Assembly: GCF_009831625.1 (NCBI RefSeq)
Contig: NZ_WUUS01000012.1
Location: forward strand, 1 to 64,000
Direction of reading: 5' to 3'
DNA: 64,000 bases
From: Halobaculum saliterrae
GTDB lineage: Archaea; Halobacteriota; Halobacteria; Halobacteriales; Haloferacaceae
Shown: one piece after another, positions 1,114-24,726 of the stretch
How positions within the stretch are numbered: the first letter of the stretch is position 1
Layout: each line of letters opens with the position of its first letter
Translations under genes and position numbers: made by a program
Notes under the pieces: generated by a model
The model's input: the letters and a program-made list of their open reading frames with translations, nothing else
Database searches by the model: none
Told to the model about the DNA's origin: nothing

Positions 1114-1548
1114 TTAGAGTGCTCGCGGATCGCTATCGACAATGCTCGCAAACGCGACGTTCTCCTGAACTTGTTCGATTTCGACTGTTGGCTCGTCGCC
1201 GGGTTGAGCGCCGGGAACAATCACGACGTACCCCCGTTCGACTTTCGCAATACCGTCTCCTTGATCACCGACGGTTTCGATTGTCACGTCGCGCACTTCT
1301 CCCTCATCAACAGGAGGACCAGATGAATCGTGGTTCGTGGTCCCCTGAGAGGCGGAATGCCGTGGGCTCTGTGTAGATGTCGATTTAGCTTCGGAGGATA
1401 AATCAAGAAGAGCGATACGGTACGTTTCATCAACAGTCAGCGTCCCATGCTTGATCTCACTCGGAGGAATCTCGATGACGAATGTGCCATCCTCCTCCTT
1501 AATTTTCGCAGTGAACAGCGAACACAGGGAGTCTGGGATTTCTACCAT
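1114..1548 (-). CDS. TRAM domain protein
   Basis: The 144-residue product begins MVEIPDSLCSLFTA, the usual opening of haloarchaeal TRAM proteins, which is why the inner ATG at 1548 is preferred over 1572. The C-terminal third (EVRDVTIETVGDQGDGIAKV, VVIVPGAQPGDEPTVEI) is a TRAM beta-barrel, a nucleic-acid-binding fold also attached to RNA-modifying enzymes. The middle is a Ser/Thr-rich linker. Archaeal stand-alone TRAM proteins are thought to bind RNA and act as cold-shock-like chaperones. The N-terminal 50 residues form a separate strand-rich module. Confidence 0.85.
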   Translation of the reverse strand: MVEIPDSLCSLFTAKIKEEDGTFVIEIPPSEIKHGTLTVDETYRIALLDLSSEAKSTSTQSPRHSASQGTTNHDSSGPPVDEGEVRDVTIETVGDQGDGIAKVERGYVVIVPGAQPGDEPTVEIEQVQENVAFASIVDSDPRAL

Positions 1549-1605
1549 AACTGAGTTTGATACTGGATACAATTAATCGGTCTCTTTGAGAAGGAGCGAA
1601 CTGGA

Positions 1606-2172
1606 TCAGCTGTCCTCAGCTGGTACTTCCCAAGGAATGTCTCGCTTGTGGACTACAGCGAGCTTCGAGTCGTCATCATCTTCCATTGCACTAAGACCAC
1701 GCTGGACGAGAGTGTGAACCTGTCCAGCAGACTCCGGGAACGAAAATTGGTCATCCTCCGCGTCAGCACGGAGTTCGAGATAATGGAGGTACAACCTGAA
1801 CGTCGTATCTGCTCCGATAGGCCACCAAATCGTCCCTATCTGCTCATCTACCTGATTGTCCCAATGCTCTATGAGTTCATGGATATCGTCGACGAGCTCC
1901 TCGCCGGAGGTGCGAAGGCGGAGGGAGTATTCCCGATCCCGCTCCATATCTTCGATTATATCCTGAAGGAAAGGCCCAGCCTCCAAGGCGGTAGGTGAGG
2001 TCTGATCCGCTTCTAGAAGGTGTTCTAACGCCCGAATTTCTTCACGCCGAGCGGCTACAGCGTATGCGACATTGTACTTGTCCTCGGGGAAGATTTCGTG
2101 TTGACTCGGTTGCTGTGCCTGAGGGACAGAATCCCCCGTGGATGAGCTAAATAAGGTCTCAAAGAGTCCCAT
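1606..2172 (-). CDS. Hypothetical acidic protein
   Basis: The frame encodes 188 residues from MGLFETLF at 2172; the upstream Met at 2196 adds only eight residues. It has a Ser/Gln-rich N-terminus, a predicted helical middle (EEIRALEHLLEADQ, DDIHELIEHWDNQVDEQ) and an aromatic stretch (TTFRLYLHYLELRAD). There is no signal peptide or membrane segment and I recognise no family. It is divergent from the recombinase gene that follows, so the two may share the 2173-2303 promoter region. Confidence 0.6.
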   Translation of the reverse strand: MGLFETLFSSSTGDSVPQAQQPSQHEIFPEDKYNVAYAVAARREEIRALEHLLEADQTSPTALEAGPFLQDIIEDMERDREYSLRLRTSGEELVDDIHELIEHWDNQVDEQIGTIWWPIGADTTFRLYLHYLELRADAEDDQFSFPESAGQVHTLVQRGLSAMEDDDDSKLAVVHKRDIPWEVPAEDS

Positions 2173-2303
2173 ACGCTTCGTCCGGAGAGCATCCATAAGT
2201 ATTTCCTGTCATAGTGGGCCTCATCTCCGGCGACTGTGAATTTATTCACCCTGACACTCGGAGAAGATGCGGGTTATCTTTGTATCGCCAGACAGCGATA
2301 TAT

Positions 2304-2975
2304 ATGGTAGCCACACGAGAGAGGGCCCTTAGCGAACGCGAGTTCGAACTATTGTTAGAAGGAGCAGGGCGGATAGGAGATACGCAACGGAGGCTCGAAA
2401 CACGAGCGGCCATTCTCCTTGGAGGCCGTCTTGGACTTAGACCAGGAGAAACAACGCACTTGTCGACAACGTGGGTTGACATAGAGCGGCAGATGATCCA
2501 GATCCCAACACAGGAAAACTGTACGAAGGGACGGGATGGCGGTATCTGTGGCTACTGTCGGCAGGCGGTGAAACAACGGCTGGATCACAATCCCAATACG
2601 GATTTCAAGAGCTTTGCTGAGCGTTATTGGCTCCCAAAAACAGAAGCCGCATCTCGAACAGTTCCGTACCACTTTTCATATAGAGTCCGAGTCGCGGTTG
2701 AACTACTACTCAACGAACATGGTGGCTGGCCCTATTCGTTCTCGACTTTACAGCGGCGACTGGAAACCGCCCTTGAATTGTCCCCAGAACTGTCTAACGA
2801 CGCAACCTCATTACACGGACTACGTGCCACAGCAGCGTCGTACCATGCGGGAAGGGGCTTAGACCTTCCTGCACTCCGAGCAATGTTCGGGTGGGAGGAC
2901 ATCACGACTGCACGTCAATATTTGAATGTTGATGGAGCGATGACCCGACGAGCGCTGGACAGTATTCATCAGTAA
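2304..2975 (+). CDS. Tyrosine recombinase (phage-integrase family)
   Basis: The 223-residue product has the whole catalytic set: the first Arg in GRLGLRPGE, a Lys in the PKTEAASRT beta-hairpin, HxxR in LHGLRATAASYH, Gly-Trp in MFGWEDI, and the nucleophile Tyr in TARQYLNV. A Cys cluster (CTKGRDGGICGYC) between the first Arg and the Lys suggests a zinc knuckle. I chose the ATG at 2304 because a T-rich box lies about 26 bases upstream; a GTG at 2214 would add 30 residues. No separate arm-binding domain is visible, so this is a catalytic-core-only recombinase. It is convergent with the partial methyltransferase gene and is the obvious candidate to act on the 56-bp inverted repeats nearby. Confidence 0.85.
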   Translation: MVATRERALSEREFELLLEGAGRIGDTQRRLETRAAILLGGRLGLRPGETTHLSTTWVDIERQMIQIPTQENCTKGRDGGICGYCRQAVKQRLDHNPNTDFKSFAERYWLPKTEAASRTVPYHFSYRVRVAVELLLNEHGGWPYSFSTLQRRLETALELSPELSNDATSLHGLRATAASYHAGRGLDLPALRAMFGWEDITTARQYLNVDGAMTRRALDSIHQ

Positions 2976-3024: not shown

Positions 3025-5376
3025 TTACTCCAGCGGGCCTACATCTCCGAGATGAGTGTATTTCTCCGCGACCTTCTCGAAGTACGCTTCCGTCATAATT
3101 CGAGGATTCGACACTCTATGGAAGTCATCAAGGACGAACTGCATTTCCTCCTCATCCAGCCCATATGCGTGGAACACGGCCGCGTCGACTTCGGCTTGTA
3201 GCTCACGCCGAGTCTCCATATCCGTCGCCGGCTCAATCCCGCCAAGTCGCTCACGCATCTCGGTAAACTCCTCACCATAACAGTTGAGCTTCGCCGCTCG
3301 ATCAGCGATGTAATGGAACCAGTCGTCGCCGTCAGTGAGTCGAGGGGCCTGTGACTCCTCAAACTTGTACTTCGAGGCGTGGGAATCAACTTTTGTCCGC
3401 ATCAAGAAATCAAAGGGGATACTGTTGATCAGACCAAGCGCGACGAAAAGCTCCTTATCGGTGAAAACACTGTCGTAAGCGCTGTGCATCGGGAATTCCG
3501 AAAGGTCGTCCTTGGTAGGGTTCGCCTCGAATGGACGGACCGTGTACAGCGTATGGACGACGACTCCACCGGGCGGGATAACAGCTGCAATGAGTGTGCG
3601 TTCATCCGTTGCACGAGCGACTTCACGGAGCACAAGCCGGTAATCAGAGCTATGGAGACGGACGTCTTCCACGGAAAGTTCGGGGCGGTCGAATTCCTCG
3701 GTTAGCAACCGATTGACGAAACGCTTCTGGGAACTTGACGGGAGATGGCTGAACTCAGGGTCATCAGCGAACTTGTTGTAGATAGCCTTCTTGAGGCTGA
3801 TCGCATCGTCCCGGGCACGGAAGTTCTTCTCTCGAACGCGACGCTTTGCGCTCAGCTCCTCGTTATCCTCATCGACACTCCACAAAGAGATGGGCTCGAG
3901 GTCGTCGACGTAGGTCGACTCATAACAGAATTGGTGGATATTCTTTCCCTGATAGACCGGATAATCCCCATTGGATTCGTCTTCGATGAATCTATCCCGA
4001 TCTCGTCCCCGATCCAGTTCCTTGTACAGGACCGTACGCCAAGCATCTTCAATTTCAGCCGCTAATGGTGGTGTCTGGAGAATTTTATCTAGCACTGAGA
4101 CCTCCTGCTGTTTCTCGATGTTAGGGAAAATTCGAGCTCCTGGAGAATACTCTTTGAGGATGCGCGCTGGAATTTCTAGAGCTACGTCGTCAATCGATCG
4201 AAGAGCGTCAACGGAAGTCTGATGAAAGATTCCATGGACAGTATCAGTGCTTCCCGCTGTTCGGAGCGTAACGATACCGAAATTATATCTATTGTCTATG
4301 TCGGAGAAGATACCTCGGTTTTCAAATCCGATGATACTCTGAATCTCCGACTCTTCCAAGGCATGTACTCGCAGATCCTTCCCAGCGGCGGCATTAAAGA
4401 ACGGACCAGGAAGCAGCTGTGAAACATAACCACCATCTCTGACAATATCGTAGACGCGCTCGAAGAACAGTAGAGACAGGTCGTTCGTCCGTGCAACCTG
4501 CTGACCCTCTACGCTTGGCGTCTGGTACTCATATTCTCCACTCTGGTTGATATAGGTCGCTTGCCGTTCCTTGTCCCGCTGGAACTTCTTCCATTCGGCA
4601 GCGATTTCAGGGTTCTCTAAGAGCTCCTCTACCTTCTTGTCCTTTTCATCTGGCGGGCGGCTACGAAACTCAGTATCGTACTTTGGGAAGAAGTCCGTCC
4701 GGTATGGCTTCAGCTCATCCCACGGTGGGTTTCCAATGATGACATCAAAGCCGCCTTCGCGATAGACTGTCGCGAACTCGAGCACCCAATGAAACGGTGA
4801 GAACTCCTCTAGTTCCTCAAGAGAGACATCCTCGTCGACAAGTTCGTTGAACTGATCGCGAATCTTTTCATTAAGCTCCTCGCTGTGAGTGTCGATTTTT
4901 CGCTCAGCCATTTTACGAGCATTCTGCGCTTCACGGGCAGAATCCGCTGCTCGATGGCGGTCCTGTTCCCTGATGATGTCCTCATAGAGGTCTTTGACTG
5001 CAGTTCCGACACCCCAATTCGAGAGTGAAGCATCGCCGGCATCCTCCCGTGCGACTTCTTGGAGCTCGGTGAACCCGATCAGCGAGTTACCCTGACGGAT
5101 GTTGAAATCAATATTCGGGAGTGGTTCGACCTCGTTCGGTTCATCCTCGATATCAGCGACCATCGACAGCCACAAGCGTAGTTTGCAGATCTCGACTGCT
5201 CCGTCCTCGATATCGACACCATAGAGATTGTTAAGGATGATAGATCGCTTTGCGAAAAGTGACATCCCCCCGTGTCCCTCTTCGATACTCTCTAATTCTT
5301 CACGACTACGACTCTCCAGCTCCCAGCCTTGCCCTTCAGATTCGAGCCGTTGGAAATACTCAATGCATTGCATCAA
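3025..5376 (-). CDS. Partial Eco57I-type methyltransferase: C-terminal specificity cassette lacking motif I
   Basis: The frame encodes 783 residues from a TTG at 5376, or 782 from the ATG at 5373. It aligns end to end with residues 436-1203 of the complete gene at 5537-9148 but lacks everything before that point, including the SAM-binding DPAVGSG motif. It keeps the catalytic NPPW motif (residues 216-219) and the C-terminal target-recognition part (FLMRTKVDSHASKYKFEESQ). Similarity begins exactly at a 56-bp block identical to the other copy in inverted orientation, then drops. On its own the product should not methylate, so it reads as a silent alternative C-terminus that inversion could join to the shared promoter and N-terminus. 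A simple decayed duplicate is the alternative, but the frame is fully open. Confidence 0.8.
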   Translation of the reverse strand: MMQCIEYFQRLESEGQGWELESRSREELESIEEGHGGMSLFAKRSIILNNLYGVDIEDGAVEICKLRLWLSMVADIEDEPNEVEPLPNIDFNIRQGNSLIGFTELQEVAREDAGDASLSNWGVGTAVKDLYEDIIREQDRHRAADSAREAQNARKMAERKIDTHSEELNEKIRDQFNELVDEDVSLEELEEFSPFHWVLEFATVYREGGFDVIIGNPPWDELKPYRTDFFPKYDTEFRSRPPDEKDKKVEELLENPEIAAEWKKFQRDKERQATYINQSGEYEYQTPSVEGQQVARTNDLSLLFFERVYDIVRDGGYVSQLLPGPFFNAAAGKDLRVHALEESEIQSIIGFENRGIFSDIDNRYNFGIVTLRTAGSTDTVHGIFHQTSVDALRSIDDVALEIPARILKEYSPGARIFPNIEKQQEVSVLDKILQTPPLAAEIEDAWRTVLYKELDRGRDRDRFIEDESNGDYPVYQGKNIHQFCYESTYVDDLEPISLWSVDEDNEELSAKRRVREKNFRARDDAISLKKAIYNKFADDPEFSHLPSSSQKRFVNRLLTEEFDRPELSVEDVRLHSSDYRLVLREVARATDERTLIAAVIPPGGVVVHTLYTVRPFEANPTKDDLSEFPMHSAYDSVFTDKELFVALGLINSIPFDFLMRTKVDSHASKYKFEESQAPRLTDGDDWFHYIADRAAKLNCYGEEFTEMRERLGGIEPATDMETRRELQAEVDAAVFHAYGLDEEEMQFVLDDFHRVSNPRIMTEAYFEKVAEKYTHLGDVGPLE
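5318..5373 (-). repeat. 56-bp perfect inverted repeat, copy 1 (methyltransferase crossover site)
   Basis: Read on the minus strand this block starts ATGCAATGCATTGAG and is identical over 56 bases to 6842-6897 on the plus strand. Identity stops sharply on both sides (G versus C before, G versus A after), although the flanking coding sequences are only moderately similar. The first 13 bases contain the perfect palindrome CAATGCATTG. Confidence 0.9.
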
Positions 5377-5536
5377 CTGAGCATCTGGCTATTGGCTGTT
5401 TTTCGACTTGAACTACGAGTGCTGGTGAAATACGAGCTGTTTCTTGCACTCTATTCAACAAGTGCATTGACCAGTTCAGTCAAAAGTCACCCTCATATCC
5501 ATCATTTTCATATGAGTAAAGCAACTTTCAGGTGGT

Positions 5537-8500
5537 ATGACTCTCCAGCAGATCACCGCATCCGATATCGCGGGCTGGGACTCTTTACAGGATATAGCGA
5601 ACACCTTTGAAAAACGCGGGCTCAAACCACGCCCGAAACTAGGGGGCGATAACGAGCTCGTAGTCCAGCTTGATGATGACGAATTCATCGTCATCGTCAA
5701 TGCTGGCCCCGGTGAGACTGCCACGGACTTCAAACCGGAAAATCGCTCACGGCACACCAACCTCGTTGCTACCAACGACTTCGAGAATTTCACCTTCATC
5801 ACACGAGTTCGGAGCTGGGAAGGCCAGCAGCACGGCCGAATCAAGCATCAAAAGATTTCGTTCTCAAAGGAGCAGTTCAGGCGGGACAGCGGAGAGAAGA
5901 ACACCATTCTCCAGAAACTGAACGCAATCGAGTACGGTTCCTCTGCTGCGATATACGATACGCTCTACGACACGCAACAGGTTGTCAAGGAGTTCTATGA
6001 ACAGTTCGAGGAACTCCGGACAGATCTCATTCAAGAAGTCACAGGCATCCCTGACGATCGTGGTGATGCGAAGCAACGATATGTGCAGGTCATTCTTGAC
6101 CGGATGATCTTCCTATACTTCATCCAGGAAAAGCGCCTTCTTGATCGAAACCCGAATTACCTCCACGAACAGCCGAATGAAGTCGTTGACGAGGGTGGTG
6201 ACCACTACGAAGAGTTCTACGAACCGCTCTTTTTCGAATACCTGGCAGAAGACAAGCAGAACCCTGACTTCGGTAGCCTTCCGTATCTGAACGGTGGATT
6301 GTTCGCAAAGAATCCCGTCGAAGAAGAGTTCGAGGACGCGAAGTTAGGTGGCCCTGCCGAGGAAACGAACGAGCTCTTCGACGATATCCTCGACTTCCTC
6401 TCCGACTGGAACTGGAACGTTGACGAACGACTCGACATCGTCGATCCCAAGAACCTCTCCCCGGCGATCTTGGGCCACATCTTCGAGCAAACGGTCAATC
6501 AGAAGGAGATGGGAGCGTACTACACGCCGGAAGAGATCACGGGGTTCATGGCCCGCCGGACGATCCATCCGTATCTGCTCGATCAACTCAATGAGGCTGT
6601 GGACGCAGACTACGACGAGGTCGACAATGTATTCGGATTCCCCGTACCCGAGTCAGATAGTGGCGCAGAAGCTGTAGCTGATGGCGGAACCATAACTCAG
6701 CAAGTTCCAACGGAAAACGTTCAGACCAGCCATGTGGAGACTCTCTACCACGATATTCTGAAGGAAGCACACATTCTCGATCCCGCCGTAGGAAGTGGCG
6801 CCTTCCTGCTCGCTGCACAGGAGGTGCTGATGGACCTATACATGCAATGCATTGAGTATTTCCAACGGCTCGAATCTGAAGGGCAAGGCTGGGAGCTAGA
6901 ATCCAGAACACGGGAAGAGATAGAGGAAATCGAGTCTGGAAAAGGCTCATCATCACTCTACGCAAAGCGAACGGCCATCCTCAACAATTTGTACGGAGTC
7001 GATATCGACGAAGGTGCTGTTGAGATTTGCAAGCTCAGGCTCTGGTTGTCGATGGTCGCTGATATTGAGGACGAACCGAGTGAGGTGGAGCCGCTCCCCA
7101 ACATCGATTTCAATGTACGGCAGGGGAACAGCCTAATCGGTCAACTCGATACGGACATCGAGAGTAACGAAGACGGAGACAGCGATCTCGATTCTTGGGA
7201 GGTAAAAACTCGTTTTGAGGACGTGAAAGAAGCCATCAAGAAGCACAAGAAAGCGGAGACCAGTGTTGAAGCTCAAGAATGGCGGAAAGAGGCAGAAGAT
7301 AGAATAGAGGAACACCGGGACAAATTTGACGAAATCCTTCGGCGGGAATTCCAAGACGCTGGCTTTGACGATATAACGATCGAGGAAATTCGGGAGTGGT
7401 CCCCCTTCCACTGGCCGCTGGAGTTCGCCGACGTCTTCGAGAAGGGTGGATTCGACGTGTTCATCGGGAACCCGCCGTGGGACATGCTCTACGCGAATCG
7501 CGACGACTTCTTCATCCGCTACGATGAGCAGTTCCGTACCTATCCGTCGGAGGAAAAGGACGGTGTGATGGAAGACCTCCTCTCAAACCCTGAAGTTGCG
7601 TGGGAATGGGAGGACTACAAGGAATCGATGGAAACGCAGGCAGACTTCTTCACACAGGGAAATGTCTATAAGCTCCAATCTCCGGTGGTAGGCGGTCGAA
7701 CGATGCCGACAAAGAACGAACTTTCGGCTCTTTTTCTTGAGCGGGTCTTCAGACTCTCCAGAGACGGCGTGAAGGTGAGTCTGCTCCTCCCCGGTACTAT
7801 CTTCGGGGGAGTAATGGGGAAAGACCTCCGAATGCATCTGCTGGACCACACGGACGTGAAGAATCTCATCGGGTTCGAGAACAAGGGTGTCTTCGAGGCT
7901 ATCGACGATAGATATCGGTTCGCGATTCTGACGTTCGAATATGGGGGGAAGACATCAGCTCTTCGGGGGATATTCAACCAACGTGACATGGATGTAGTCT
8001 ACCGGATCGAAAATGAGGCAGTCAATATCCCGCGCGACGTACTCGTCAGTTATTCTCCAGAGGGGGGAATCTTCCCATCCATCACCTCGCAGATCGAAGT
8101 AAGCGTCTTGGAGAAGGTAGTTGAGCAGCCTTCCTTGGGTGAAGATTTAGAGGAGACTTGGACAGTTGATATGCTCACTAAGGAGTTCGTTGAATCGACT
8201 GATAAGGATAGGCTCCAGACATCGCCGGAGGAGGCCGACTATCCCGTCTACGGCGGCAAAAATATCCACCAGTTCCAGTACGATAATACCTACACAGATG
8301 CGTTAGATGGACCGCAGTACTGGAGTCGGGGGATGTACGATCCACCGAATAGTGCTCAGTACCGTGTTCGAGAAAAGAAATTCAACAGGGGTAATCTCAA
8401 ACGGGCAATCTACGACGCCTTTGGAGGTTCAGAGACGAGCAAGTCTCAAGTTCAATTCGTAGATGAACTACTCGAAGAGCACCGTGGTCACGGACTTGAG

Positions 8501-9148
8501 GAAGAAGATGTCCTGCTCGATTGTACTGAATACCGAATCGGCATTCGAGACGTTTCTCGAGCCCGGGACGAGCGGACGATAATAGCTACGGTACTTCCGA
8601 AGGACGTCATCTGTCTCCACACCATTAACACGTTCAAGCCGTTCGCTATTGAGCCTGAAGAGGAACACCTCACAGAGTCCCCACTTCGGTCACCCTACGT
8701 CCGGCGATTTACGGATCAAGAACTCTTCGTGGCAACGGGGCTCCTGAATAGCATTGCGTTCGATTTCCTGATGCGGACCAAAGTCGAGACGCATATCGTC
8801 AAGCGCGAGCTACTGGAATCCCAGCTACCACGCCTCACCGACGGAGAGGACTGGTTCCATTATATCGCTGAACGAGCTGCCCGATTGAACTGTTACGGGG
8901 AAGAATTCAAAGAAATGCGTGAGCGACTCGGCGGAATCGAGGCAGCGATAGAAGATCAAGAACGTAGAGAATTACAGGCTGAAATCGACGCGGCCGCATT
9001 CCACGCGTATGGCCTGAAACGTCGTGACGTGAAGTTTGTCCTCGACGACTTCCATCGCGTTGAGAATCCGAAGCTGATGGACGAGATGTACTTCGATCTG
9101 GTCTTGGAGAAATATGATCTGCTGGATCAGAAGGGGCCCCTACCGTAG
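5537..9148 (+). CDS. Eco57I-type adenine-specific DNA methyltransferase, complete
   Basis: The product has 1203 residues. An N-terminal helical region (VILDRMIFLYFIQEKRLLDRN) precedes the SAM-binding motif ILDPAVGSGAF (DPAVGSG from residue 415), the catalytic NPPW (645-648) typical of N6-adenine methylation, and a long C-terminal target-recognition region. Size and motif order match single-chain Eco57I/PglX-like enzymes in which modification and specificity are in one polypeptide; I see no clear PD-(D/E)XK nuclease at the N-terminus. The ATG at 5537 follows GGTGGT and a T-rich box near 5505-5512. The inverted repeat at 6842 falls in frame at Met436, so an inversion would give a 1217-residue protein with the other C-terminus. 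It is convergent with the PLD-helicase gene, 8 bp apart. Confidence 0.9.
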   Translation: MTLQQITASDIAGWDSLQDIANTFEKRGLKPRPKLGGDNELVVQLDDDEFIVIVNAGPGETATDFKPENRSRHTNLVATNDFENFTFITRVRSWEGQQHGRIKHQKISFSKEQFRRDSGEKNTILQKLNAIEYGSSAAIYDTLYDTQQVVKEFYEQFEELRTDLIQEVTGIPDDRGDAKQRYVQVILDRMIFLYFIQEKRLLDRNPNYLHEQPNEVVDEGGDHYEEFYEPLFFEYLAEDKQNPDFGSLPYLNGGLFAKNPVEEEFEDAKLGGPAEETNELFDDILDFLSDWNWNVDERLDIVDPKNLSPAILGHIFEQTVNQKEMGAYYTPEEITGFMARRTIHPYLLDQLNEAVDADYDEVDNVFGFPVPESDSGAEAVADGGTITQQVPTENVQTSHVETLYHDILKEAHILDPAVGSGAFLLAAQEVLMDLYMQCIEYFQRLESEGQGWELESRTREEIEEIESGKGSSSLYAKRTAILNNLYGVDIDEGAVEICKLRLWLSMVADIEDEPSEVEPLPNIDFNVRQGNSLIGQLDTDIESNEDGDSDLDSWEVKTRFEDVKEAIKKHKKAETSVEAQEWRKEAEDRIEEHRDKFDEILRREFQDAGFDDITIEEIREWSPFHWPLEFADVFEKGGFDVFIGNPPWDMLYANRDDFFIRYDEQFRTYPSEEKDGVMEDLLSNPEVAWEWEDYKESMETQADFFTQGNVYKLQSPVVGGRTMPTKNELSALFLERVFRLSRDGVKVSLLLPGTIFGGVMGKDLRMHLLDHTDVKNLIGFENKGVFEAIDDRYRFAILTFEYGGKTSALRGIFNQRDMDVVYRIENEAVNIPRDVLVSYSPEGGIFPSITSQIEVSVLEKVVEQPSLGEDLEETWTVDMLTKEFVESTDKDRLQTSPEEADYPVYGGKNIHQFQYDNTYTDALDGPQYWSRGMYDPPNSAQYRVREKKFNRGNLKRAIYDAFGGSETSKSQVQFVDELLEEHRGHGLEEEDVLLDCTEYRIGIRDVSRARDERTIIATVLPKDVICLHTINTFKPFAIEPEEEHLTESPLRSPYVRRFTDQELFVATGLLNSIAFDFLMRTKVETHIVKRELLESQLPRLTDGEDWFHYIAERAARLNCYGEEFKEMRERLGGIEAAIEDQERRELQAEIDAAAFHAYGLKRRDVKFVLDDFHRVENPKLMDEMYFDLVLEKYDLLDQKGPLP
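6842..6897 (+). repeat. 56-bp perfect inverted repeat, copy 2 (inside the methyltransferase gene)
   Basis: This is the plus-strand partner of 5318-5373. It begins at codon 436 (Met) of the complete methyltransferase gene and lies between motif I and the catalytic NPPW motif. The segment between the two repeats (about 1.47 kb) holds the promoter and the N-terminal third of the gene. Confidence 0.9.
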
Positions 9149-9156
9149 CTCCCGAA

Positions 9157-12100
9157 TCACTGTCCGACAACCCCCCAGCATACGAGCTTCGCTTGTACAT
9201 CACTCTCTCCCATCAGTTTTGTCTGGTATTCAGTAGAGGCTTCGACGTTCTCTTCCAAGAACTCCTCAAGCTGCCTGAGGAACTCAACAGTCGGCCACTC
9301 TGGGAAGGAGTCGTACTGCTCATTCTGACGAAAGATCTCCCGTAGAATTCGATCTTCATCCGTGTTCGCCAGCTTTACCTCCTGCAGCCGCTCTTCGATA
9401 TCGTTAGCCCATTCTCCTATCGTTTCGAACTCTTCAACAGGAGCCGGCTCATCGCCGTGATTCGGCTGAACGTAGTGACTGATAAAATCGAGGATCGTTT
9501 CCTGTTCCTTCGAGAAGGCCTCTCCCTGTTTGAAAGCACCCTCAACTTGGCCTTCTCGAATCACCTCAAGGCGCTCGTCAAGCACTGCTTGAATTTCACC
9601 GCGATTCGATAACACCGTATCTGGATTTCCGGTAATCGGTTCGCCGTCAACTGAAGGGCCGATGTTGAGCGTGCTCACGGGCCGCTCTTTGACCTCGTCG
9701 GCGAAGGGCTTGTAGTAGAAAGCACGACGGACGCGACCAAGCGGGGACTCGTGGTCATCATCGTCGAACCAGAGGTGGGCAAGGGCGAACACGCCCGGAC
9801 GAGGACCGGCATCGTGGTCAGTTACATTCGTGTAGAGGAATTCCCGTTCTTCGGGCGGGTCATCAAAGAAGTCCTCAGCGTACTCGAAGTCTTCCGCGGT
9901 CAGATCGTAATCCTCGTTTAGTTCTCGCTTCAGAAGGTACCGTTCGAATGCAGCGTGCTCATTACTCCCAGCGTTGCGGAGGAGCGGGTTCTTGCTCGTG
10001 TCGTCGAGTTCATTCACGTCGTCAATTTCACGGGACTTCTGGAGGGAGTCCTCGATCTCGTCCACCTGTAGTTCCCCAATCGTCTTCTCCGTGTCCACAC
10101 CTGTCTTTTCCAGAATCTGGTCTTCATTCGGATCGAGGATGTTGTTCTCCTTCCCGACGATGAGCGCGATGTCGTTGATTTTTGCTTGAAGCCGTTTCAG
10201 AAGCTTGATAGCCGCCTCGATGTCGCCGTCTGGGTAGAAGTTGTGGACGTGTTTCTCGGCGGTACTCCCGATCCGGTCGACTCGCCCGACACGCTGGACA
10301 ATCCGCATCGGGTTCCACGGCAGGTCGTAATTGACCACCACATGAACGTCCTGAAGATTAACCCCTTCACTCAGCGTGTCAGTGGCCACTACGTACTGTA
10401 GCTCTGAATCCCCCGACTCAGCGAGCGTTTGCTGATAGCCTGACGCCTCAGGGGCAAAGCGTTGAATGATGTCCTGCTTATTCTCGTCGCCACCTTTGAC
10501 GACGGCACTGTTCGCCTCGGTAAGTGGTGAATCCACGTTGTCACAGAGAGTTCGATAGACGTAGTCTGCAGTTGCCCGGTACTGAGTGAAGATGAGCACT
10601 TTCTGGTCGTGATCAGAGAGGACATCTGCAAGTCGGTCGATCTTCGGGTCGCGGAACTCGCGGAGTGAAAAGACGGCCTCGTAAAAGTCGCGTGTAGCGG
10701 AGTCAACTTCGCTCAGGTCACTATTCGGGTAGAGAATCGGATTCATCTCTTCTTCAGGAATATCTGGAAGGGCACCAGCGTCGTGGTCAGCGAGCCATTG
10801 CCGCGTGGAAACCGCATAATCGCTCACATCACCCGCATCACGGGCGACATCACCGATGAACTGCGAGAGAAAATACGAGAGAAGGGTGAGGTCCTCCCTA
10901 ATGTACGTCTTCACCTCACCGATGGTGGCGTCTGCTAGTTCATCTCCCTCGGTATCAGCTCCTTCTTCCGATTGGATAGCGGTGGTATCGAAACCGAATT
11001 CTTCGAGTGTTTGTTCGAGATCTTCAGCAGCGTCTGCTCCTTCGACAAAGTCACCGAGTTCAGAGTCATCCCTCTCCCGAACAGTTCGGAGCATATCGAT
11101 GTCTTCGTCCTCTGGGAGTTCACCAAGAAGGCCGAGAAGCTGGCGTTCGCTCTGATGCAGCGTCTCGATCGACTGGACGAACGCGTACGTTGAGGACTCG
11201 AGCCGTTTGAGGAGGTTCAGCTTGTAGAGGGCTTTCAGAGTGCTCCCCGCTTTCGGGTTTTTGACTGTGATGTGGGGAAGGTGGAGGGCGTCCATCACGT
11301 CGGGAAGCATCCGATAGATTGGCTGGTAGGCCGCCGGCAGGGAGTACTGTTGCTTGTTGAGTTTCGGCGGCTTGAAGCTCATCTCGAAGTCTTCGCTGTC
11401 CTGAATCTGGTCTTTGACGTGCTTACGCGTCCGGAGAACCATCACTTCGTTCAGGATATTCGAAATCTCAGAGGAGTGTCGCTGGAGCTGCTCGGTGATT
11501 TCTTGCTGTTCGTCGTCGTCGACCTCTTCTTTCCCGGCCGCGATGCGTTTTCGCGTCTCCGAGAGTTCGATGTATTCGTCGAACGCGTCAAAGTCGAGTG
11601 AGGCCTTGTTCCGAAGTTCCTCCGGGCTGGTGAACAAGCTGATGAGGTTCTTCAGGTCGGTAGCGCTGTTATTGATGGGGGTCGCAGTCAGCATAATCAT
11701 CGTCTTTCCGCGGAGCTGCCTGAGATTGGCGTGTCGTCGCGTCCCCTTGTAGTCGTCATCGTGGTCTGGGTTCGGTCGCCACTTCCCATAATTCCGGAAC
11801 CGGTGAGCCTCGTCGATAAGCAGGACGTCGAACTCGTCTTTGAGATCCTGCACCTCGTCGTAGGAAAGATTCTGGAACTTACTGATACTCATCACATCAA
11901 GGTGCGTGCCGTCCACCTCTAACCCGAAGTACGGATTGCCGTCTTCGTCAGTGTCGTTCTGGAGTAAGTCTTCCCACTGATCAGTCAGGTTAGCAGGGAC
12001 AATGAGGAGACAGTGGTCGCCACGTTGGCGGTAGTCGTGGAGGAGTTCACCGCCAATAAATGATTTCCCTAGGCCGACCGAGTCGGAGACGATGCACCCG

Positions 12101-12963
12101 TTGAACTGTGAGAGCTTTTCCTTTGCACTCTCGTACCCGAGCTTCTGGAAGTAATACAGTGGGCTGTCACGGATGTTAACGTTCCCACTCAGTTCGTCGT
12201 AGGCGAGCAGTTTGTAGAGCTCGAACGGTTCGAGATACGTGCCCAGCTCCTCGGATGACGTCTCCTTGTCGGACTCGTCCTCCTGCTGTTCCTTCCAGTC
12301 CTGGTACTCCTTGCTGTTCTCGATGATTCGGATGATCTCCTCACTAAATTCCTCGGCGTTGGCCCACTGGTTGTCATACCACTCCTCGAACGCTTCGGCC
12401 TTGTGTCGATCCTGACTCGTGAGGTTCAGCTCGATGTTGTTCTGGTGGCCGCTCTTGGTGAAGTTCGAGGAGCCGACAACTGTAGCGCATGGGCGGGTGT
12501 CTTCATCCTCGTCTTGTCCCCAATCTTCGTCATCTTCGAGTGGCGCTCGAAATGACGCACCCTTTGCATGGAAGTAACCGTTTTCAGGATTTCGCACACG
12601 GACGCTCACTTCGCCTTCGGCGATAAAGTCTCGTAGCCGGTCTAGTCGGCCGATTTGAGCGTTATTCAGCTCCGAGATGCTTTCTCTCACCTCTCTTTTG
12701 AGTTCCTCTTTGAGATTCTGCCCCTCACCGATTTCGTCAGCAGTTCCCCTATTCGTCTGACGGCCCATCAAGATCCGAAGTGGGGCGTGGCCGAGATCGT
12801 CGGGGTCAGCCAGGTTCTCAAGGTCTTCCCGGTAGAGGTCGAATCCTGAGAGATAAAAGTATCCAGTTGCGATACGGCCCTCCTCGATCTGGGGAATAAT
12901 TCGTTTGTAAGCGTCTTCTAGTGTTCTGTTGGCGTTATCGACAAGCGGAGGAAGCGAGAGCAT
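9157..12963 (-). CDS. PLD-like nuclease fused to SNF2-type helicase
   Basis: The 1268-residue product starts with a phospholipase-D-like domain: HAK at 132-134 and GSSNFTKSG around 164-172 make one HxK...N active-site half, so the domain would work as a dimer. A superfamily 2 helicase follows: Walker A SVGLGKS (Lys300), DEAH (384-387), LTATPINNS, and motifs V/VI in EGVNLQDVHVVVNYD and RIVQRVGRVDRIGS. The remaining C-terminus is acidic and helical. Such a nuclease-translocase next to a methyltransferase is the arrangement of a restriction module in which the helicase-nuclease attacks unmodified DNA. PglZ, BrxC, DrmA and DrmB-like partners are absent here, so I do not call it BREX or DISARM. 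Confidence 0.88.
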   Translation of the reverse strand: MLSLPPLVDNANRTLEDAYKRIIPQIEEGRIATGYFYLSGFDLYREDLENLADPDDLGHAPLRILMGRQTNRGTADEIGEGQNLKEELKREVRESISELNNAQIGRLDRLRDFIAEGEVSVRVRNPENGYFHAKGASFRAPLEDDEDWGQDEDEDTRPCATVVGSSNFTKSGHQNNIELNLTSQDRHKAEAFEEWYDNQWANAEEFSEEIIRIIENSKEYQDWKEQQEDESDKETSSEELGTYLEPFELYKLLAYDELSGNVNIRDSPLYYFQKLGYESAKEKLSQFNGCIVSDSVGLGKSFIGGELLHDYRQRGDHCLLIVPANLTDQWEDLLQNDTDEDGNPYFGLEVDGTHLDVMSISKFQNLSYDEVQDLKDEFDVLLIDEAHRFRNYGKWRPNPDHDDDYKGTRRHANLRQLRGKTMIMLTATPINNSATDLKNLISLFTSPEELRNKASLDFDAFDEYIELSETRKRIAAGKEEVDDDEQQEITEQLQRHSSEISNILNEVMVLRTRKHVKDQIQDSEDFEMSFKPPKLNKQQYSLPAAYQPIYRMLPDVMDALHLPHITVKNPKAGSTLKALYKLNLLKRLESSTYAFVQSIETLHQSERQLLGLLGELPEDEDIDMLRTVRERDDSELGDFVEGADAAEDLEQTLEEFGFDTTAIQSEEGADTEGDELADATIGEVKTYIREDLTLLSYFLSQFIGDVARDAGDVSDYAVSTRQWLADHDAGALPDIPEEEMNPILYPNSDLSEVDSATRDFYEAVFSLREFRDPKIDRLADVLSDHDQKVLIFTQYRATADYVYRTLCDNVDSPLTEANSAVVKGGDENKQDIIQRFAPEASGYQQTLAESGDSELQYVVATDTLSEGVNLQDVHVVVNYDLPWNPMRIVQRVGRVDRIGSTAEKHVHNFYPDGDIEAAIKLLKRLQAKINDIALIVGKENNILDPNEDQILEKTGVDTEKTIGELQVDEIEDSLQKSREIDDVNELDDTSKNPLLRNAGSNEHAAFERYLLKRELNEDYDLTAEDFEYAEDFFDDPPEEREFLYTNVTDHDAGPRPGVFALAHLWFDDDDHESPLGRVRRAFYYKPFADEVKERPVSTLNIGPSVDGEPITGNPDTVLSNRGEIQAVLDERLEVIREGQVEGAFKQGEAFSKEQETILDFISHYVQPNHGDEPAPVEEFETIGEWANDIEERLQEVKLANTDEDRILREIFRQNEQYDSFPEWPTVEFLRQLEEFLEENVEASTEYQTKLMGESDVQAKLVCWGVVGQ

Positions 12964-14280: not shown

Positions 14281-15106
14281 GCTTCGCGATGGCGTTCACG
14301 ATAGACTTCTGCCGCCAACCGACAATCTCATCCGCTTCCTCCTTTACCACTGCTGGAAGTCGCTTGTTCCCGTTCGGTCGCACACCAATAATGGGTTTCT
14401 CGAAATGGTCTGCCATCTCAATTTCCTCCTCGATCCACTCGCTGTGCGAGACGTACATCCCAGCGACGACGACGACCACATTTGCCTGCCCAACCTGCTG
14501 GTAGAGCTGTTGACGAAGATCATTCTTATCTTCGAATTCCATCGGATCGTCCTCTGGGACACTGAAGTTCTGCCAGTCCAGCCGACTTTCATCGTCAAGG
14601 AACTCCTCAATGCGTTCACGCTGCTCGGAGTACTTCCACGAGTGACTCACAAACACCCGATACGGCCGATCTTCAAGAGGGAGACGCGGCTGCGTCGACG
14701 TGCCGGTCTTATCTGTTGTTGAACCAGATGAAACTAGGCCACCAAGTCCCTGAGCGCCCTTGTATGTGAAATAGCCTGCTATGGCGGTAGCGATAATGAG
14801 TTCCGGGGCGTCGTGCCAAAGGTAACGAAGTGGATCATCGTGTGGATCATGATCGACTTGTTCACCTTTCCAGTCTGCATATCCGGCGAGGAGTTCTTTT
14901 CCGAGGTCGACGACATCGGGGGTTTGCTCGTTTGCGGTTGGAACTGGTGTTGTATCGGAGCCATCAATAGTGTCCTCGAACAGGCCAGCAAACGGATCGT
15001 CTTCCCCGTTTGATTTGATAAGGGCATTCACGTCAAGGCTTCCAGTGGGGCTTTGCACCTCGACGGTCGGGACGTTGGTGACAGGGTCGTTTTCGTTGGG
15101 TGTCAC
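14273..15106 (-). CDS. ThsB-like (MTH538) TIR domain protein
   Basis: The 277-residue product has a disordered N-terminus, a hydrophobic stretch at about 101-125 (possible membrane anchor) and a C-terminal TIR-like domain at 149-270. Diagnostic blocks are YRVFVSHSWKYSEQ, LDWQNFSVPEDDPM, VVVVVAGMYVSHSEWIEEEI and KPIIGVRPNGNKRLP, typical of ThsB TIR proteins of Thoeris, which sense phage and make a NAD-derived signal. The candidate catalytic Glu lies in SEWIEEEI. The start is GTG at 15106, supported by a TATA-like box 26 bases upstream. It heads an operon with the effector remnant, the membrane protein and a small protein. No ThsA-type NADase is present nearby. Confidence 0.85.
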   Translation of the reverse strand: MTPNENDPVTNVPTVEVQSPTGSLDVNALIKSNGEDDPFAGLFEDTIDGSDTTPVPTANEQTPDVVDLGKELLAGYADWKGEQVDHDPHDDPLRYLWHDAPELIIATAIAGYFTYKGAQGLGGLVSSGSTTDKTGTSTQPRLPLEDRPYRVFVSHSWKYSEQRERIEEFLDDESRLDWQNFSVPEDDPMEFEDKNDLRQQLYQQVGQANVVVVVAGMYVSHSEWIEEEIEMADHFEKPIIGVRPNGNKRLPAVVKEEADEIVGWRQKSIVNAIAKHA

Positions 15107-15318: not shown

Positions 15319-16347
15319 ATGATCCGCGATGCTCGCGTACTCCGCGCTGGGTTCGTTCCTCGGGAAGTTGAGCATCGCGACGCCGAAGTCAATCACCTCT
15401 CCAGCGTTCTCGAGCCCATTACGAATGGTGAACCCGCCGACACGGCCATCGTCACCGGGCCCAGCGGGACGGGTAAAACCTGTATCTCGCAGTTCGTCAC
15501 CGAACGGCTCCGGGAAGAAGTCCTCGACGTCGAAACCACCTACGTCAACTGCTGGCGCAACTACACCCGATTCCGGACGCTCTACCAGATCCTCGACGAC
15601 CTCGGCACCACCATCGACATCCACCGGCAGTCGACGCCGCACGACGAACTCGTCGACCGCCTCCAGCAACACGACGGCCCACGAACAGTGGTCATCCTCG
15701 ACGAGGTCGACCAACTGGAGGACCCCAGCGTCATCTACGACCTTCACAGCCTCCCGCAGTTTGCGATCATCTGCATCGCGAACAAGGAAGAAGAGCTGTT
15801 CAGCCGCGTCGACGACCGCCTCGTGAGCCGCCTGCGCTCCAGCGAGCACGTCCGGATGGACAAGTACCACGACGAGCAGCTGTACGATATCCTGAGTGCT
15901 CGGGCAAAGTGGGGGCTCGACGAGGACGTCATCACCGACGACCAGCTCTACCGAATCGCCGACGCGGGCGCCGGCGACGCCCGCCTCGCAATCGGCATCC
16001 TCCGAACGGCCGCCGGCAAAGCAGATCGCGAGAACCACGAGCGCATCACCGACGACATTCTCCTGGACGCCGCTGAGGATGCCCGGGCCCAGATTAAACA
16101 GAAGAGCCTTGACTCGCTCACTCCGCACCAGCGCGTCGTCTACGACATCGTTCGCGAGCACGGCCCGGTCGGGCCGAGCGAGATCCACGAGCGCTATTCC
16201 GAGGACGTCGATGATCCGCGGACGAAACGGACTATCCGCACGTACCTCTCGAAGATGGAGCAGTACAACCTTCTCGAGGCGGAAGGGACGAGTCGGGATC
16301 GAGAGTACGCACTCGTCGATTCGGCAGCTGCATCGCCAATTCAGTAA
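15319..16347 (+). CDS. Orc1/Cdc6-family AAA+ protein
   Basis: The 342-residue product has Walker A GPSGTGKT, Walker B VVILDEVDQ, sensor-2-like GDARLAIGILRTAA and a C-terminal winged helix (LTPHQRVVYDIVREHGPVGPSEIHERY). Length and order fit archaeal Orc1/Cdc6 replication initiators. A T-rich box near 15277-15286 lies about 38 bases upstream. No clear origin-box array is visible beside it, unlike the second Orc1 at 24727, so it may serve in regulation or repair instead. Upstream it carries GGAAGC-type motifs also found before the RecA-like and polB genes. Confidence 0.9.
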   Translation: MIRDARVLRAGFVPREVEHRDAEVNHLSSVLEPITNGEPADTAIVTGPSGTGKTCISQFVTERLREEVLDVETTYVNCWRNYTRFRTLYQILDDLGTTIDIHRQSTPHDELVDRLQQHDGPRTVVILDEVDQLEDPSVIYDLHSLPQFAIICIANKEEELFSRVDDRLVSRLRSSEHVRMDKYHDEQLYDILSARAKWGLDEDVITDDQLYRIADAGAGDARLAIGILRTAAGKADRENHERITDDILLDAAEDARAQIKQKSLDSLTPHQRVVYDIVREHGPVGPSEIHERYSEDVDDPRTKRTIRTYLSKMEQYNLLEAEGTSRDREYALVDSAAASPIQ

Positions 16348-22386: not shown

Positions 22387-24552
22387 ATGCCGTTCAGTAT
22401 CGACTTTCTGGACGATGGCCGCGTCCTGGAGTGGGAGGCAACCGCCGACGGCGCCGTCGCGACCGAGCGCGATGACTATACCCCACGCTTCTACGTCGCC
22501 CCTCGCGACCCAGAGATCGATCTCGACCTCACGACCCTCCAGTCGGTGTACGACCAGCACCCGGACGTCGTCGCGACCGAGACGATTGCGCGAGGGCCAA
22601 GCTTTCGACGGAACGAGGAACCAGTCCTCGCCGTCGACGTCGCCCACATCGACCGCGTCACCCCACTCGCCCGGCAGGCACGCCAGCTGTCGGAGTATCC
22701 AGTCGGGGATCTCGCCTGTTTCAATGTCGACTTCTCACGGGAGTTCCGATACTGTCTGGAGACCGGTGCCGATCCGACGCCGGCGAGCGAGCTGTCGACG
22801 CTCCGGCTCAGCGTTCCGGTGACCGAAACGAGCAACGACGTCTATGGGGAGCTGTCCGTCGCCGACGACACCGTCACCGGTTCGCCGACGGATATACTGA
22901 CCGCCGTCCAAAGGGCACTCGAAGCGCACGATCCAGATGTCCTGGTCTGCTCGACGAGCGAGATCGTCCCGACCCTATACGAGATGGCGACGGATGCCGG
23001 CGTCGACGACTTCTCGCTGAGTCGGTGGCCGGACGTCGACTACCAGCAGCTCGCGAGCCGGTCGACGTACTCGAGCTACGGCCGCGTCGGTCACTCGCCG
23101 GCGCGGTACAACGTCCCCGGGCGGGCGATCATCGACGAGTCGAACACGTTCTTCTACGGGGAGACGAACCTCGACGGCGTCCTCGACCTCGTGTCGCGCT
23201 CCAAAAAGCCCGTCCAGGAGCTCGCGTGGGCGTCGATCGGGAACGTCCTCACGGCGATCCAGATTTGCGAGGCCCACGACCGCGGTGTCCTCGTCCCGTG
23301 GAACTCCTGGCGCCACGAGTTCTACAAGCCGATGGGGACGCTCCACGACGCCGACCGCGGCGGCTTCATCTTCGCGCCCGAGGTGGGCCTCCACGAGAAC
23401 GTCCACGAACTCGACTTCTCCTCGTTGTATCCGAACATCATCTGCACCCGGAACGTCTCGCCGGACGTCATCCGGTGTGACTGCCACAGCGACCGCGACG
23501 ACGTCCCCGGCCTCGGGTACTCGATCTGCGACGACCGGGGCTACCTCGTCGACGTGCTGCAACCGATCATCGACGCACGCGACGAGATCAAGGCGGCCAT
23601 CCGTCGCGAGAAGGAACGGAATGACCCCGACGAGGACCGACTGGCTGAGCTCGAGGGGCGGTCGGGAGCGCTGAAGTGGATTCTCGTCGCCTGCTTCGGC
23701 TATCAAGGGTTCAGCAACGCGAAGTTCGGTCGCATCGAGTGCCACGAGGCGATTAACGCGTTCGCTCGGGAGATTCTGCTGACGGCGAAACAGCGGCTGG
23801 AAGCCGGCGGCTGGCACGTCGTCCACGGCATCGTCGACTCCATCTGGGTGACCCCGGACCCTGACGTCGACGACGAGGACCGAGAGGACCTCCAGACGCT
23901 CGCAACAGAGATCACAGACTGCGTCGAGATTCGACTCGAACACGAGGCGCACTACGACTGGGTGGCGTTCGTGCCACAGCGCGAGAGCGACGCCGGCGCG
24001 CTGACGAAGTACTTCGGGAAGGTCGCCGGCGACGACGACTTCAAAATCAGAGGTATCGAAGCCCGACAGCGTTCGACCCCGCCGTTCATCGAGGACGTCC
24101 AACGGGATTGTCTCGACCGGCTCGATGCCACACGGTCACCGGACGCAGTGCTCGGACGTCTCGAACGAGCAATCGACGAACTGCAGGCGGGCAACGTAGC
24201 AGTGGAGCGGCTCGTCGAGCGGAATCGTGTTTCCAAGCCGCTGGAAGGCTACTCACAGAATACCCAGAACGTGGCGGCCTTGAAACGGGCTCGCGAGCAG
24301 GATCTGGCGGTCCACCCGGGCCAGGATATCGAGTACGTGGTCGTCGACGACGAGAAATCCTCGCGAGACCGGGTCGCCCTCGCCCACGAAGCGATCGAGA
24401 CCTATGACGCTTCGTACTACGAGACGCAGCTGGTTCGAGCGGTTGAGAGCGTGCTGTTGCCGCTGGGGTGGGATCGTACAGATATTCGACGGAGACTCGC
24501 GGAGACACGAGAGGTGGAGCTGACGGAGTTTACAGCTGCCCGGAACGGATGA
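22387..24552 (+). CDS. Divergent B-family DNA polymerase (PolB2-like)
   Basis: The 721-residue product keeps motif A as DFSSLYPNI (Asp at 343) and motif B as LKWILVACFGYQGFSN (Lys near 430). Motif C reads HGIVDSIWV, so the usual first Asp of DTDS is replaced while the second (about 484) remains. The N-terminal region where the 3'-5' exonuclease should be has no convincing DIE motif (closest is FNVDFSREF). The length is shorter than replicative haloarchaeal PolB. These traits fit an accessory, probably proofreading-deficient polymerase used in repair or plasmid replication. Activity is uncertain. Confidence 0.85.
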   Translation: MPFSIDFLDDGRVLEWEATADGAVATERDDYTPRFYVAPRDPEIDLDLTTLQSVYDQHPDVVATETIARGPSFRRNEEPVLAVDVAHIDRVTPLARQARQLSEYPVGDLACFNVDFSREFRYCLETGADPTPASELSTLRLSVPVTETSNDVYGELSVADDTVTGSPTDILTAVQRALEAHDPDVLVCSTSEIVPTLYEMATDAGVDDFSLSRWPDVDYQQLASRSTYSSYGRVGHSPARYNVPGRAIIDESNTFFYGETNLDGVLDLVSRSKKPVQELAWASIGNVLTAIQICEAHDRGVLVPWNSWRHEFYKPMGTLHDADRGGFIFAPEVGLHENVHELDFSSLYPNIICTRNVSPDVIRCDCHSDRDDVPGLGYSICDDRGYLVDVLQPIIDARDEIKAAIRREKERNDPDEDRLAELEGRSGALKWILVACFGYQGFSNAKFGRIECHEAINAFAREILLTAKQRLEAGGWHVVHGIVDSIWVTPDPDVDDEDREDLQTLATEITDCVEIRLEHEAHYDWVAFVPQRESDAGALTKYFGKVAGDDDFKIRGIEARQRSTPPFIEDVQRDCLDRLDATRSPDAVLGRLERAIDELQAGNVAVERLVERNRVSKPLEGYSQNTQNVAALKRAREQDLAVHPGQDIEYVVVDDEKSSRDRVALAHEAIETYDASYYETQLVRAVESVLLPLGWDRTDIRRRLAETREVELTEFTAARNG

Positions 24553-24664: not shown

Positions 24665-24726
24665 AGGTAAATCAATCACACCGAGGGTGGGCAACCTATA
24701 TGTGAATGGGGCGAATTGGTCCGCTC

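What the first reader, a model, noticed from the sequence alone, without database searches (positions are those of the whole stretch)
3025..9148. Invertible methyltransferase: one promoter and N-terminus, two alternative target-recognition halves
Seen: a complete Eco57I-type gene and an oppositely oriented copy that begins exactly at the same Met codon, both fully open, sharing a perfect 56-bp inverted repeat that is in frame. Known: phase-variable hsdS and BREX pglX loci switch specificity by such inversions. Inferred: flipping the 1.47-kb promoter/N-terminus block makes a 1217-residue enzyme with the other specificity, giving epigenetic switching in an archaeon.
Basis: partly seen in the sequence, partly recalled or inferred. 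Interest (0 to 1): 0.88.

Follow-up and report, generated by a model that had tools for sequence, protein, structure and literature searches.

The report
Flip-switched DNA methyltransferase of haloarchaeal plasmids
On plasmids of salt-loving archaea, a 1.47-kb DNA segment carrying the start of a DNA-methylating enzyme flips between two different enzyme ends. Both states were found in the DNA of a single strain, so these archaea probably switch which DNA sites they mark by DNA inversion.

Summary
A promoter plus 435-codon N-terminal block (5374-6841) lies between two inverted, in-frame C-terminal halves that share a perfect 56-bp repeat. Two Halorubrum plasmids about 99.5% identical throughout differ only by this flip. 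In the Halorussus vallis plasmid record NZ_CP100003.1, the first 46.2 kb recur at the end, and the 1,467-bp block is reverse-complemented between the copies with no mismatch, so both states existed in one strain's DNA. Silent halves stay under strong purifying selection (dN/dS 0.05-0.09). In this methyltransferase family every locus with the second half has the recombinase; loci without it have one half. The partner gene is a PLD-nuclease/SNF2 helicase; no PglZ occurs in the genome, so this is not BREX. Specificity change and defence are inferred, not shown. A new archaeal variant of a known kind.

The parts
2214..2975 (+). R: tyrosine recombinase, proposed invertase; lies outside the inverted block, convergent with half A
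   Evidence: Pfam Phage_integrase 2.6e-10; nearest viral relatives are Int1 of phiCh1/phiH, 41-45% identity, and HCTV-5 integrase, 44%; R..K..HxLR..W..Y conserved with Int1
3025..5373 (-). Half A (silent here): alternative C-terminal half of the methyltransferase with NPPW motif and variable recognition region, 782 codons
   Evidence: dN/dS 0.05-0.07
5318..5373 (-). Inverted repeat, left arm (56 bp, in frame)
5374..5536 (+). Intergenic/promoter part of the invertible block, pointing into the N-terminal gene part
   Evidence: position; conserved upstream sequence in relatives; promoter function inferred
5537..6841 (+). Constant N-terminal 435 codons (includes motif I, DPAVGSG)
6842..6897 (+). 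Inverted repeat, right arm (56 bp, in frame)
6842..9148 (+). Half B (joined to the N-terminal part here)
5537..9148 (+). Intact methyltransferase in the present orientation, 1203 aa (Eco57I/N6 MTase, gamma-class fold with C-terminal recognition region)
9157..12963 (-). H: PLD-nuclease + SNF2 helicase, convergent partner gene (HxK 132, GSSN 164, GLGKS 297, DEAH 384, QRVGR 890)
   Evidence: next to the MTase also in loci without R
1606..2196 (-). U: 196-aa unknown protein, divergent from R, kept in many group-1 loci
   Evidence: no family match
1114..1572 (-). T: TRAM-domain protein, kept with U

Best explanation
This is a specificity-switching DNA methyltransferase module on haloarchaeal plasmids. 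The tyrosine recombinase R (2214-2975) recombines the two inverted 56-bp repeats and flips the 1.47-kb block carrying the promoter and the 435-residue N-terminal part. The block then drives either half B (1203 aa) or half A (1217 aa); the unjoined half has no promoter and is stored silent. Each half brings motif IV, the target-recognition region and the C-terminus, so the two states should methylate different DNA motifs. The methyltransferase works with the PLD-nuclease/SNF2 helicase H as a restriction-modification-like defence, so flipping changes both the self mark and the site checked on incoming DNA. Shown: the anatomy, both orientations in nature and in one strain, repeated switching, and selection on silent halves. 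Inferred: that R is the invertase, that specificity changes, and that H restricts.
For: Perfect 56-bp IR and two in-frame open products. Second locus in the same genome in the other orientation, encoding the 1217-aa form. Hrr. salipaludis (L061) vs Hrr. salinarum pHAR02 (L146): 99.1-99.7% identity in recombinase, both halves, block and helicase, opposite block orientation. Halorussus vallis NZ_CP100003.1: 1-46,183 repeated at 121,285-167,465, block reverse-complemented with 0 mismatches over 1,467 bp. At least 3-4 orientation changes on trees of 11 loci (2 forced by starred branches). Arms differ by 0.55 of 54 bp within a locus vs 2.7 between loci (0 of 20,000 permutations). Silent-half dN/dS 0.05-0.09, like the expressed half and the N-part (0.04-0.05). 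R present with a second inverted half in 14 loci, absent with a single half in 20 (p 7e-10, not corrected for kinship). R belongs with halovirus Int1, which flips tail-fibre genes. Foldseek: gamma-class m6A methyltransferases with a recognition domain (CamA, BseCI, PglX, MmeI). Six of nine draft contigs break at an IR arm.
Against: No reads could be mapped, so the switching rate is unknown, and the window locus itself has been seen in one orientation only. No methylation data. Silent halves are broken in H. roseum (insertion) and XH14 (early stop), so some loci no longer switch. R relatives at 60-65% identity sit by other methyltransferases without any inverted half, so R is not always a half-swapper. 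Homologous recombination between the repeats is not excluded. The H. vallis repeat could be a true duplication rather than an untrimmed overlap, though an inversion is needed either way. The fold model is partly low confidence and TM-scores are low.
Confidence: 0.83

Rival explanations
1. The inversion is real, but homologous recombination or gene conversion between the repeats drives it, and the recombinase gene is only a passenger.
For: Variants outside the first 25 bp are often shared by both arms of a locus, which looks like gene conversion. R relatives exist beside methyltransferases without repeats.
Against: The repeats are only about 54-56 bp. R co-occurs with the second half in all 14 such loci and is absent from 20 single-half loci. 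R is related to a known invertase and has intact catalytic residues. A second subgroup uses a different repeat but keeps R.
Confidence: 0.12
2. It is an on/off or antigenic-type switch without change of DNA specificity: both halves recognise the same motif and flipping only diversifies the protein, for example against phage inhibitors.
For: No methylome data; some parts of the halves are 80-88% identical between A and B.
Against: The region after motif IV, where gamma-class enzymes carry the recognition domain, is mostly 32-49% identical between A and B, and again low between A and A'.
Confidence: 0.1
3. A dead relic: a duplicated, rearranged methyltransferase with chance identity at the junction.
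For: Some relatives carry broken halves or scrambled blocks (L143).
Against: Exact flip with 0 mismatches in H. vallis, strong purifying selection on silent halves, recurrent orientation changes.
Confidence: 0.02

Closest known systems
Inverting hsdS loci of Type I R-M systems (S. pneumoniae, PsrA-driven; abstracts of PMC4948785, PMC7096588)
   Same: Inverted repeats, linked tyrosine recombinase, exchange of recognition segments, switching of methylation specificity by DNA inversion
   Different: Here one polypeptide carries catalysis and recognition; the moving piece is the promoter plus N-terminus, not the recognition segment; the junction is inside the catalytic domain; host is an archaeon; module is plasmid-borne; partner is a PLD-SNF2 protein
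Int1 tail-fibre inversion of haloviruses phiCh1 and phiH (PMC6210493)
   Same: Homologous tyrosine recombinase (41-45% identity), inversion at repeats inside coding sequence, one active and one start-less gene copy
   Different: There the recombinase lies inside the inverted segment and the cargo is a tail fibre; here it lies outside and the cargo is a methyltransferase; repeat sequences show no resemblance
BREX PglX/BrxX
   Same: Gamma-class N6-adenine methyltransferase with C-terminal recognition region; Foldseek match
   Different: No PglZ in the genome; far below NCBIfam PglX cut-offs (63 vs 500 bits). In the paper read here BREX phase variation is by a homopolymer tract (PMC6326788); reports of pglX inversion are from memory only
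DUF499-centred BREX-related (Hma-like) systems, Type-2 (PMC12839542)
   Same: N-terminal HKD nuclease fused to a Swi2/Snf2 helicase plus an N6-methyltransferase
   Different: No DUF499 ATPase near the locus; one marginal hit on another contig
DISARM class 1 (DrmD + DrmMI)
   Same: SNF2 helicase plus Eco57I-type methyltransferase; weak profile matches
   Different: DrmD scores 143 of the required 610 bits; no DrmA/DrmB match among the neighbouring proteins scanned

Membership tests
DNA-inversion specificity-switching methyltransferase | Two alternative C-terminal/recognition segments in inverted arrangement, in frame with one start | tested here: met
DNA-inversion specificity-switching methyltransferase | Inverted repeats at the crossover, both orientations in one strain | tested here: met
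   (H. vallis); different loci of the window's own genome
DNA-inversion specificity-switching methyltransferase | Linked site-specific recombinase | tested here: met
   activity itself not tested
DNA-inversion specificity-switching methyltransferase | Methylation motif differs between orientations | not testable with these tools
   no methylome data
Halovirus Int1 invertases | Homology with conserved catalytic residues | tested here: met
Halovirus Int1 invertases | Recombinase gene inside the inverted segment | tested here: not met
   R at 2214-2975 lies outside 5318-6897; Int1 lies inside
BREX | PglZ present | tested here: not met
   no PF08665 match in the genome, controls ring
DUF499-centred BREX-related systems | HKD-nuclease/Snf2 helicase fusion with N6-MTase | tested here: met
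DUF499-centred BREX-related systems | DUF499 ATPase in the locus | tested here: not met
   only a 27-bit hit on contig C2
DISARM class 1 | DrmD above its curated cut-off, with DrmA and DrmB | tested here: not met
   143 of 610 bits; no DrmA/DrmB among the neighbouring proteins scanned, H only cross-matching a DrmA helicase profile weakly
Type IIG restriction enzyme (fused nuclease) | Nuclease domain in the same chain as the methyltransferase | tested here: inconclusive
   PADLOC IIG profiles match but no Pfam nuclease domain and the N-terminal model is poor

The most novel reading that the evidence does not exclude
A halovirus tail-fibre invertase lineage was captured by a plasmid-borne methyltransferase plus PLD-helicase defence module, making an archaeal immune system that reprograms its self/non-self mark by DNA inversion. 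Two subgroups evolved separate crossover repeats in the same gene about 150 bp apart.
Probability: 0.55. Interest if true: 0.85.

Novelty: new variant of a known kind. Interest (0 to 1): 0.74.

Why it matters
Epigenetic switching by programmed inversion is well studied in bacteria. I found no description of it for a DNA methyltransferase in archaea in the open-access papers searched, and a review of archaeal tyrosine recombinases does not mention methyltransferases. Here it sits on plasmids across many haloarchaeal genera and is testable in cultivated strains. It links a viral host-range switch (Int1) with a cellular defence switch. It also raises a clear question: how a cell survives changing its protective mark while a linked nuclease-helicase is present.

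Tried and rejected
(1) The Halorussus vallis 46.2-kb repeat was considered as a true duplication. Its position at both record ends, and a similar end repetition by gene order in H. aquaticus NZ_CP100403.1 (same orientation twice), favour an untrimmed circular overlap; either reading requires an inversion. (2) Viral contigs were searched for the N-block: none. (3) The phiCh1/phiH repeats were compared with ours by eye: no resemblance. (4) A shared YATTGA box sits at positions 9-14 of both repeat types, with codon ATT in all group-1 and group-2 active repeats. Group-1 loci are too alike and the motif too short, so this is only a lead. (5) The full-length AlphaFold model was poor (mean pLDDT 61); the C-terminal 808 residues were better (74). 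Global TM-scores to known methyltransferases stay low, so I use it only as support for the gamma-class fold. (6) phmmer against PDB sequences: nothing. (7) BREX, DISARM and DUF499 membership rejected as above.

Full report
OBSERVATION. The minus-strand ORF runs 3025-5376 and the plus-strand ORF 5537-9148. The repeat 5318-5373 / 6842-6897 is exact over 56 bp; it is the longest exact inverted repeat in the window, the next being 21 bp. Beyond the repeat the halves drop to about 70% DNA identity, so the identity of the arms is special. Joining the N-terminal 435 codons to half B gives 1203 residues and to half A 1217, both open.

BOTH ORIENTATIONS EXIST. The same genome holds a second copy on contig C13, 89-93% identical, with the middle block inverted relative to both flanking halves. 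That copy encodes the 1217-residue enzyme. Twelve sequences with the same halves-and-block layout were compared (two of them, L061 and L133, are the same locus): in W, L024, L146 and L141 the block is joined to the helicase-side half; in L009, L025, L124, L061/L133, L142, L145 and L144 to the recombinase-side half. L061 (Halorubrum salipaludis) and L146 (Halorubrum salinarum plasmid pHAR02) are 99.1-99.7% identical in every segment and differ by the flip. On trees of 11 loci the orientation changes at least 3 or 4 times, with 2 changes forced by well-supported branches.

ONE STRAIN, BOTH STATES. The Halorussus vallis plasmid record NZ_CP100003.1 (167,465 bp) repeats its first 46,183 bases at its end (121,285-167,465) at 99.95-99.99% identity. 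The 1,467-bp block is exactly reverse-complemented between the copies, with no mismatch. This is most simply a circular plasmid of about 121 kb whose overlapping ends were left in, the two ends built from molecules in opposite states. A Halorussus aquaticus record shows a similar end repetition by gene order, in one state only. If it is instead a real duplication, an inversion followed it. Six of nine draft contigs end at an arm of the repeat, as expected if both paths exist in the reads, although short repeats can also break assemblies.

SELECTION ON THE SILENT HALF. Intact silent halves compared with silent halves give dN/dS 0.05-0.09, the same as joined halves and close to the constant N-terminal part (0.04-0.05). 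A half that was never expressed would not be kept this way. Exceptions are H. roseum (insertion in the silent half) and XH14 (early stop).

THE RECOMBINASE. It is a tyrosine recombinase. Its nearest relatives among 50,697 phage records are the HCTV-5 integrase and Int1 of phiH and phiCh1, with the catalytic Arg, Lys, HxLR, Trp and Tyr conserved. Int1 flips a segment that swaps tail-fibre genes (PMC6210493). Among loci of this methyltransferase family with the surroundings visible, 14 have R and an inverted second half, and 20 have neither; kinship is not corrected for. In three R-bearing loci of a second subgroup (G093, Halovenus rubra, Natrialba taiwanensis; R 75-78% identical) the repeat lies about 150 bp further into the gene and the silent half begins exactly there. 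The crossover site has therefore moved or arisen twice, while R stayed. Arms match within a locus (mean 0.55 differences of 54) far better than between loci (2.7; 0 of 20,000 permutations). No locus has a mismatch between its arms in the first 25 bp, so the crossover probably lies there.

WHAT IS SWITCHED. Motif I (DPAVGSG) is at residue 415 of the constant part; NPPW is at residue 215 of half A and 210 of half B. The exchange therefore replaces part of the catalytic domain plus everything after it. A and B are 80-88% identical in the first 80 residues and again around 675-715, but mostly 32-49% in between. An AlphaFold model of residues 396-1203 (mean pLDDT 74) matches gamma-class m6A methyltransferases with a recognition domain after the catalytic domain: CamA, BseCI, PglX, MmeI. 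That the two forms recognise different motifs is an inference from this.

PARTNER GENE. The convergent gene 9157-12963 has a PLD domain and an SNF2 helicase with intact motifs. It stands next to the methyltransferase in loci with and without R, so the basic unit is methyltransferase plus helicase-nuclease and switching is an added feature. PglZ is absent from the genome, a DUF499 ATPase is not near, and DrmD and PglX cut-offs are not reached. It works like a restriction-modification or BREX-related system but is not filed as BREX, DISARM or a DUF499 system.

DISTRIBUTION. Thirteen PLSDB records match the R-to-MTase stretch. The best nine (Halobaculum, Halorubrum, Halorussus, Natronomonas, Natrinema) carry an annotated site-specific integrase and cover 53-100% of it; the other four lack R. 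Draft genomes of Halosimplex, Natrialba, Halobellus and others carry it too. In the class-level sample the N-terminal part is found in 43 of 391 genomes and close R in 24.

LIMITS. No reads, no methylomes and no assays were available. R as the invertase, the change of motif, and restriction by the helicase-nuclease are inferences. The literature check covers open-access papers only; ten searches found no archaeal methyltransferase switched by inversion.

Noticed in passing
L138 12809-12888 / 14529-14608; L122 7977-8014 / 9640-9677; L139 12839-12919 / 14543-14623: Second subgroup of the same system uses an inverted repeat about 150 bp downstream (codons GVDI..GAVEIC), with the silent half starting exactly at the repeat.
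   Followed up: partly
L026, L065, L193 (L192 in part): R relatives at 60-65% identity stand beside a 1278-aa methyltransferase; in L026, L065 and L193 a 1407-aa-type methyltransferase lies head-to-head with it. No inverted halves or repeats of 20 bp or more; what R does there is unexplained.
   Followed up: partly
window:6842-6855 and L138 14529-14542: Both repeat types carry YATTGA at positions 9-14 from the arm start, with the uncommon Ile codon ATT; possible crossover box.
   Followed up: partly
NZ_CP100003.1 1-46183 and 121285-167465; NZ_CP100403.1 ends: Two 'complete' Halorussus plasmid records appear to keep untrimmed circular overlaps of about 46 kb.
   Followed up: partly
L143 7100-8214 / 8531-9645: In Natrinema sp. 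DC36 the block is replaced by a 1.1-kb palindromic duplication with broken N-terminal pieces and an IS6 transposase in half A: a dead form of the switch.
   Followed up: no
L136 9707-9799 / 10794-10886: Halostagnicola sp. A56 has a close R (93%) without the methyltransferase, flanked by a 93-bp inverted repeat.
   Followed up: no
L069 8996-9046 / 11507-11557: A more distant R relative (39%) sits between arms of a 51-bp inverted repeat: another candidate invertible segment.
   Followed up: no
window:13278-15106: 8xMP membrane protein next to a ThsB-like TIR protein, beside the module: possible further defence genes.
   Followed up: no
window:17975-19207: Strong match (9e-94) to PADLOC candidate defence family PDC-S54.
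   Followed up: no
window:15319-25995: Two Cdc6 genes (15319-16347, 24706-25995) and a family B DNA polymerase (22387-24552), consistent with a plasmid or megaplasmid.
   Followed up: no
window:1606-2196 and 2214-2975: U is divergent from R with a 17-bp gap and kept with it in many group-1 loci; it could be a helper or regulator of recombination.
   Followed up: no
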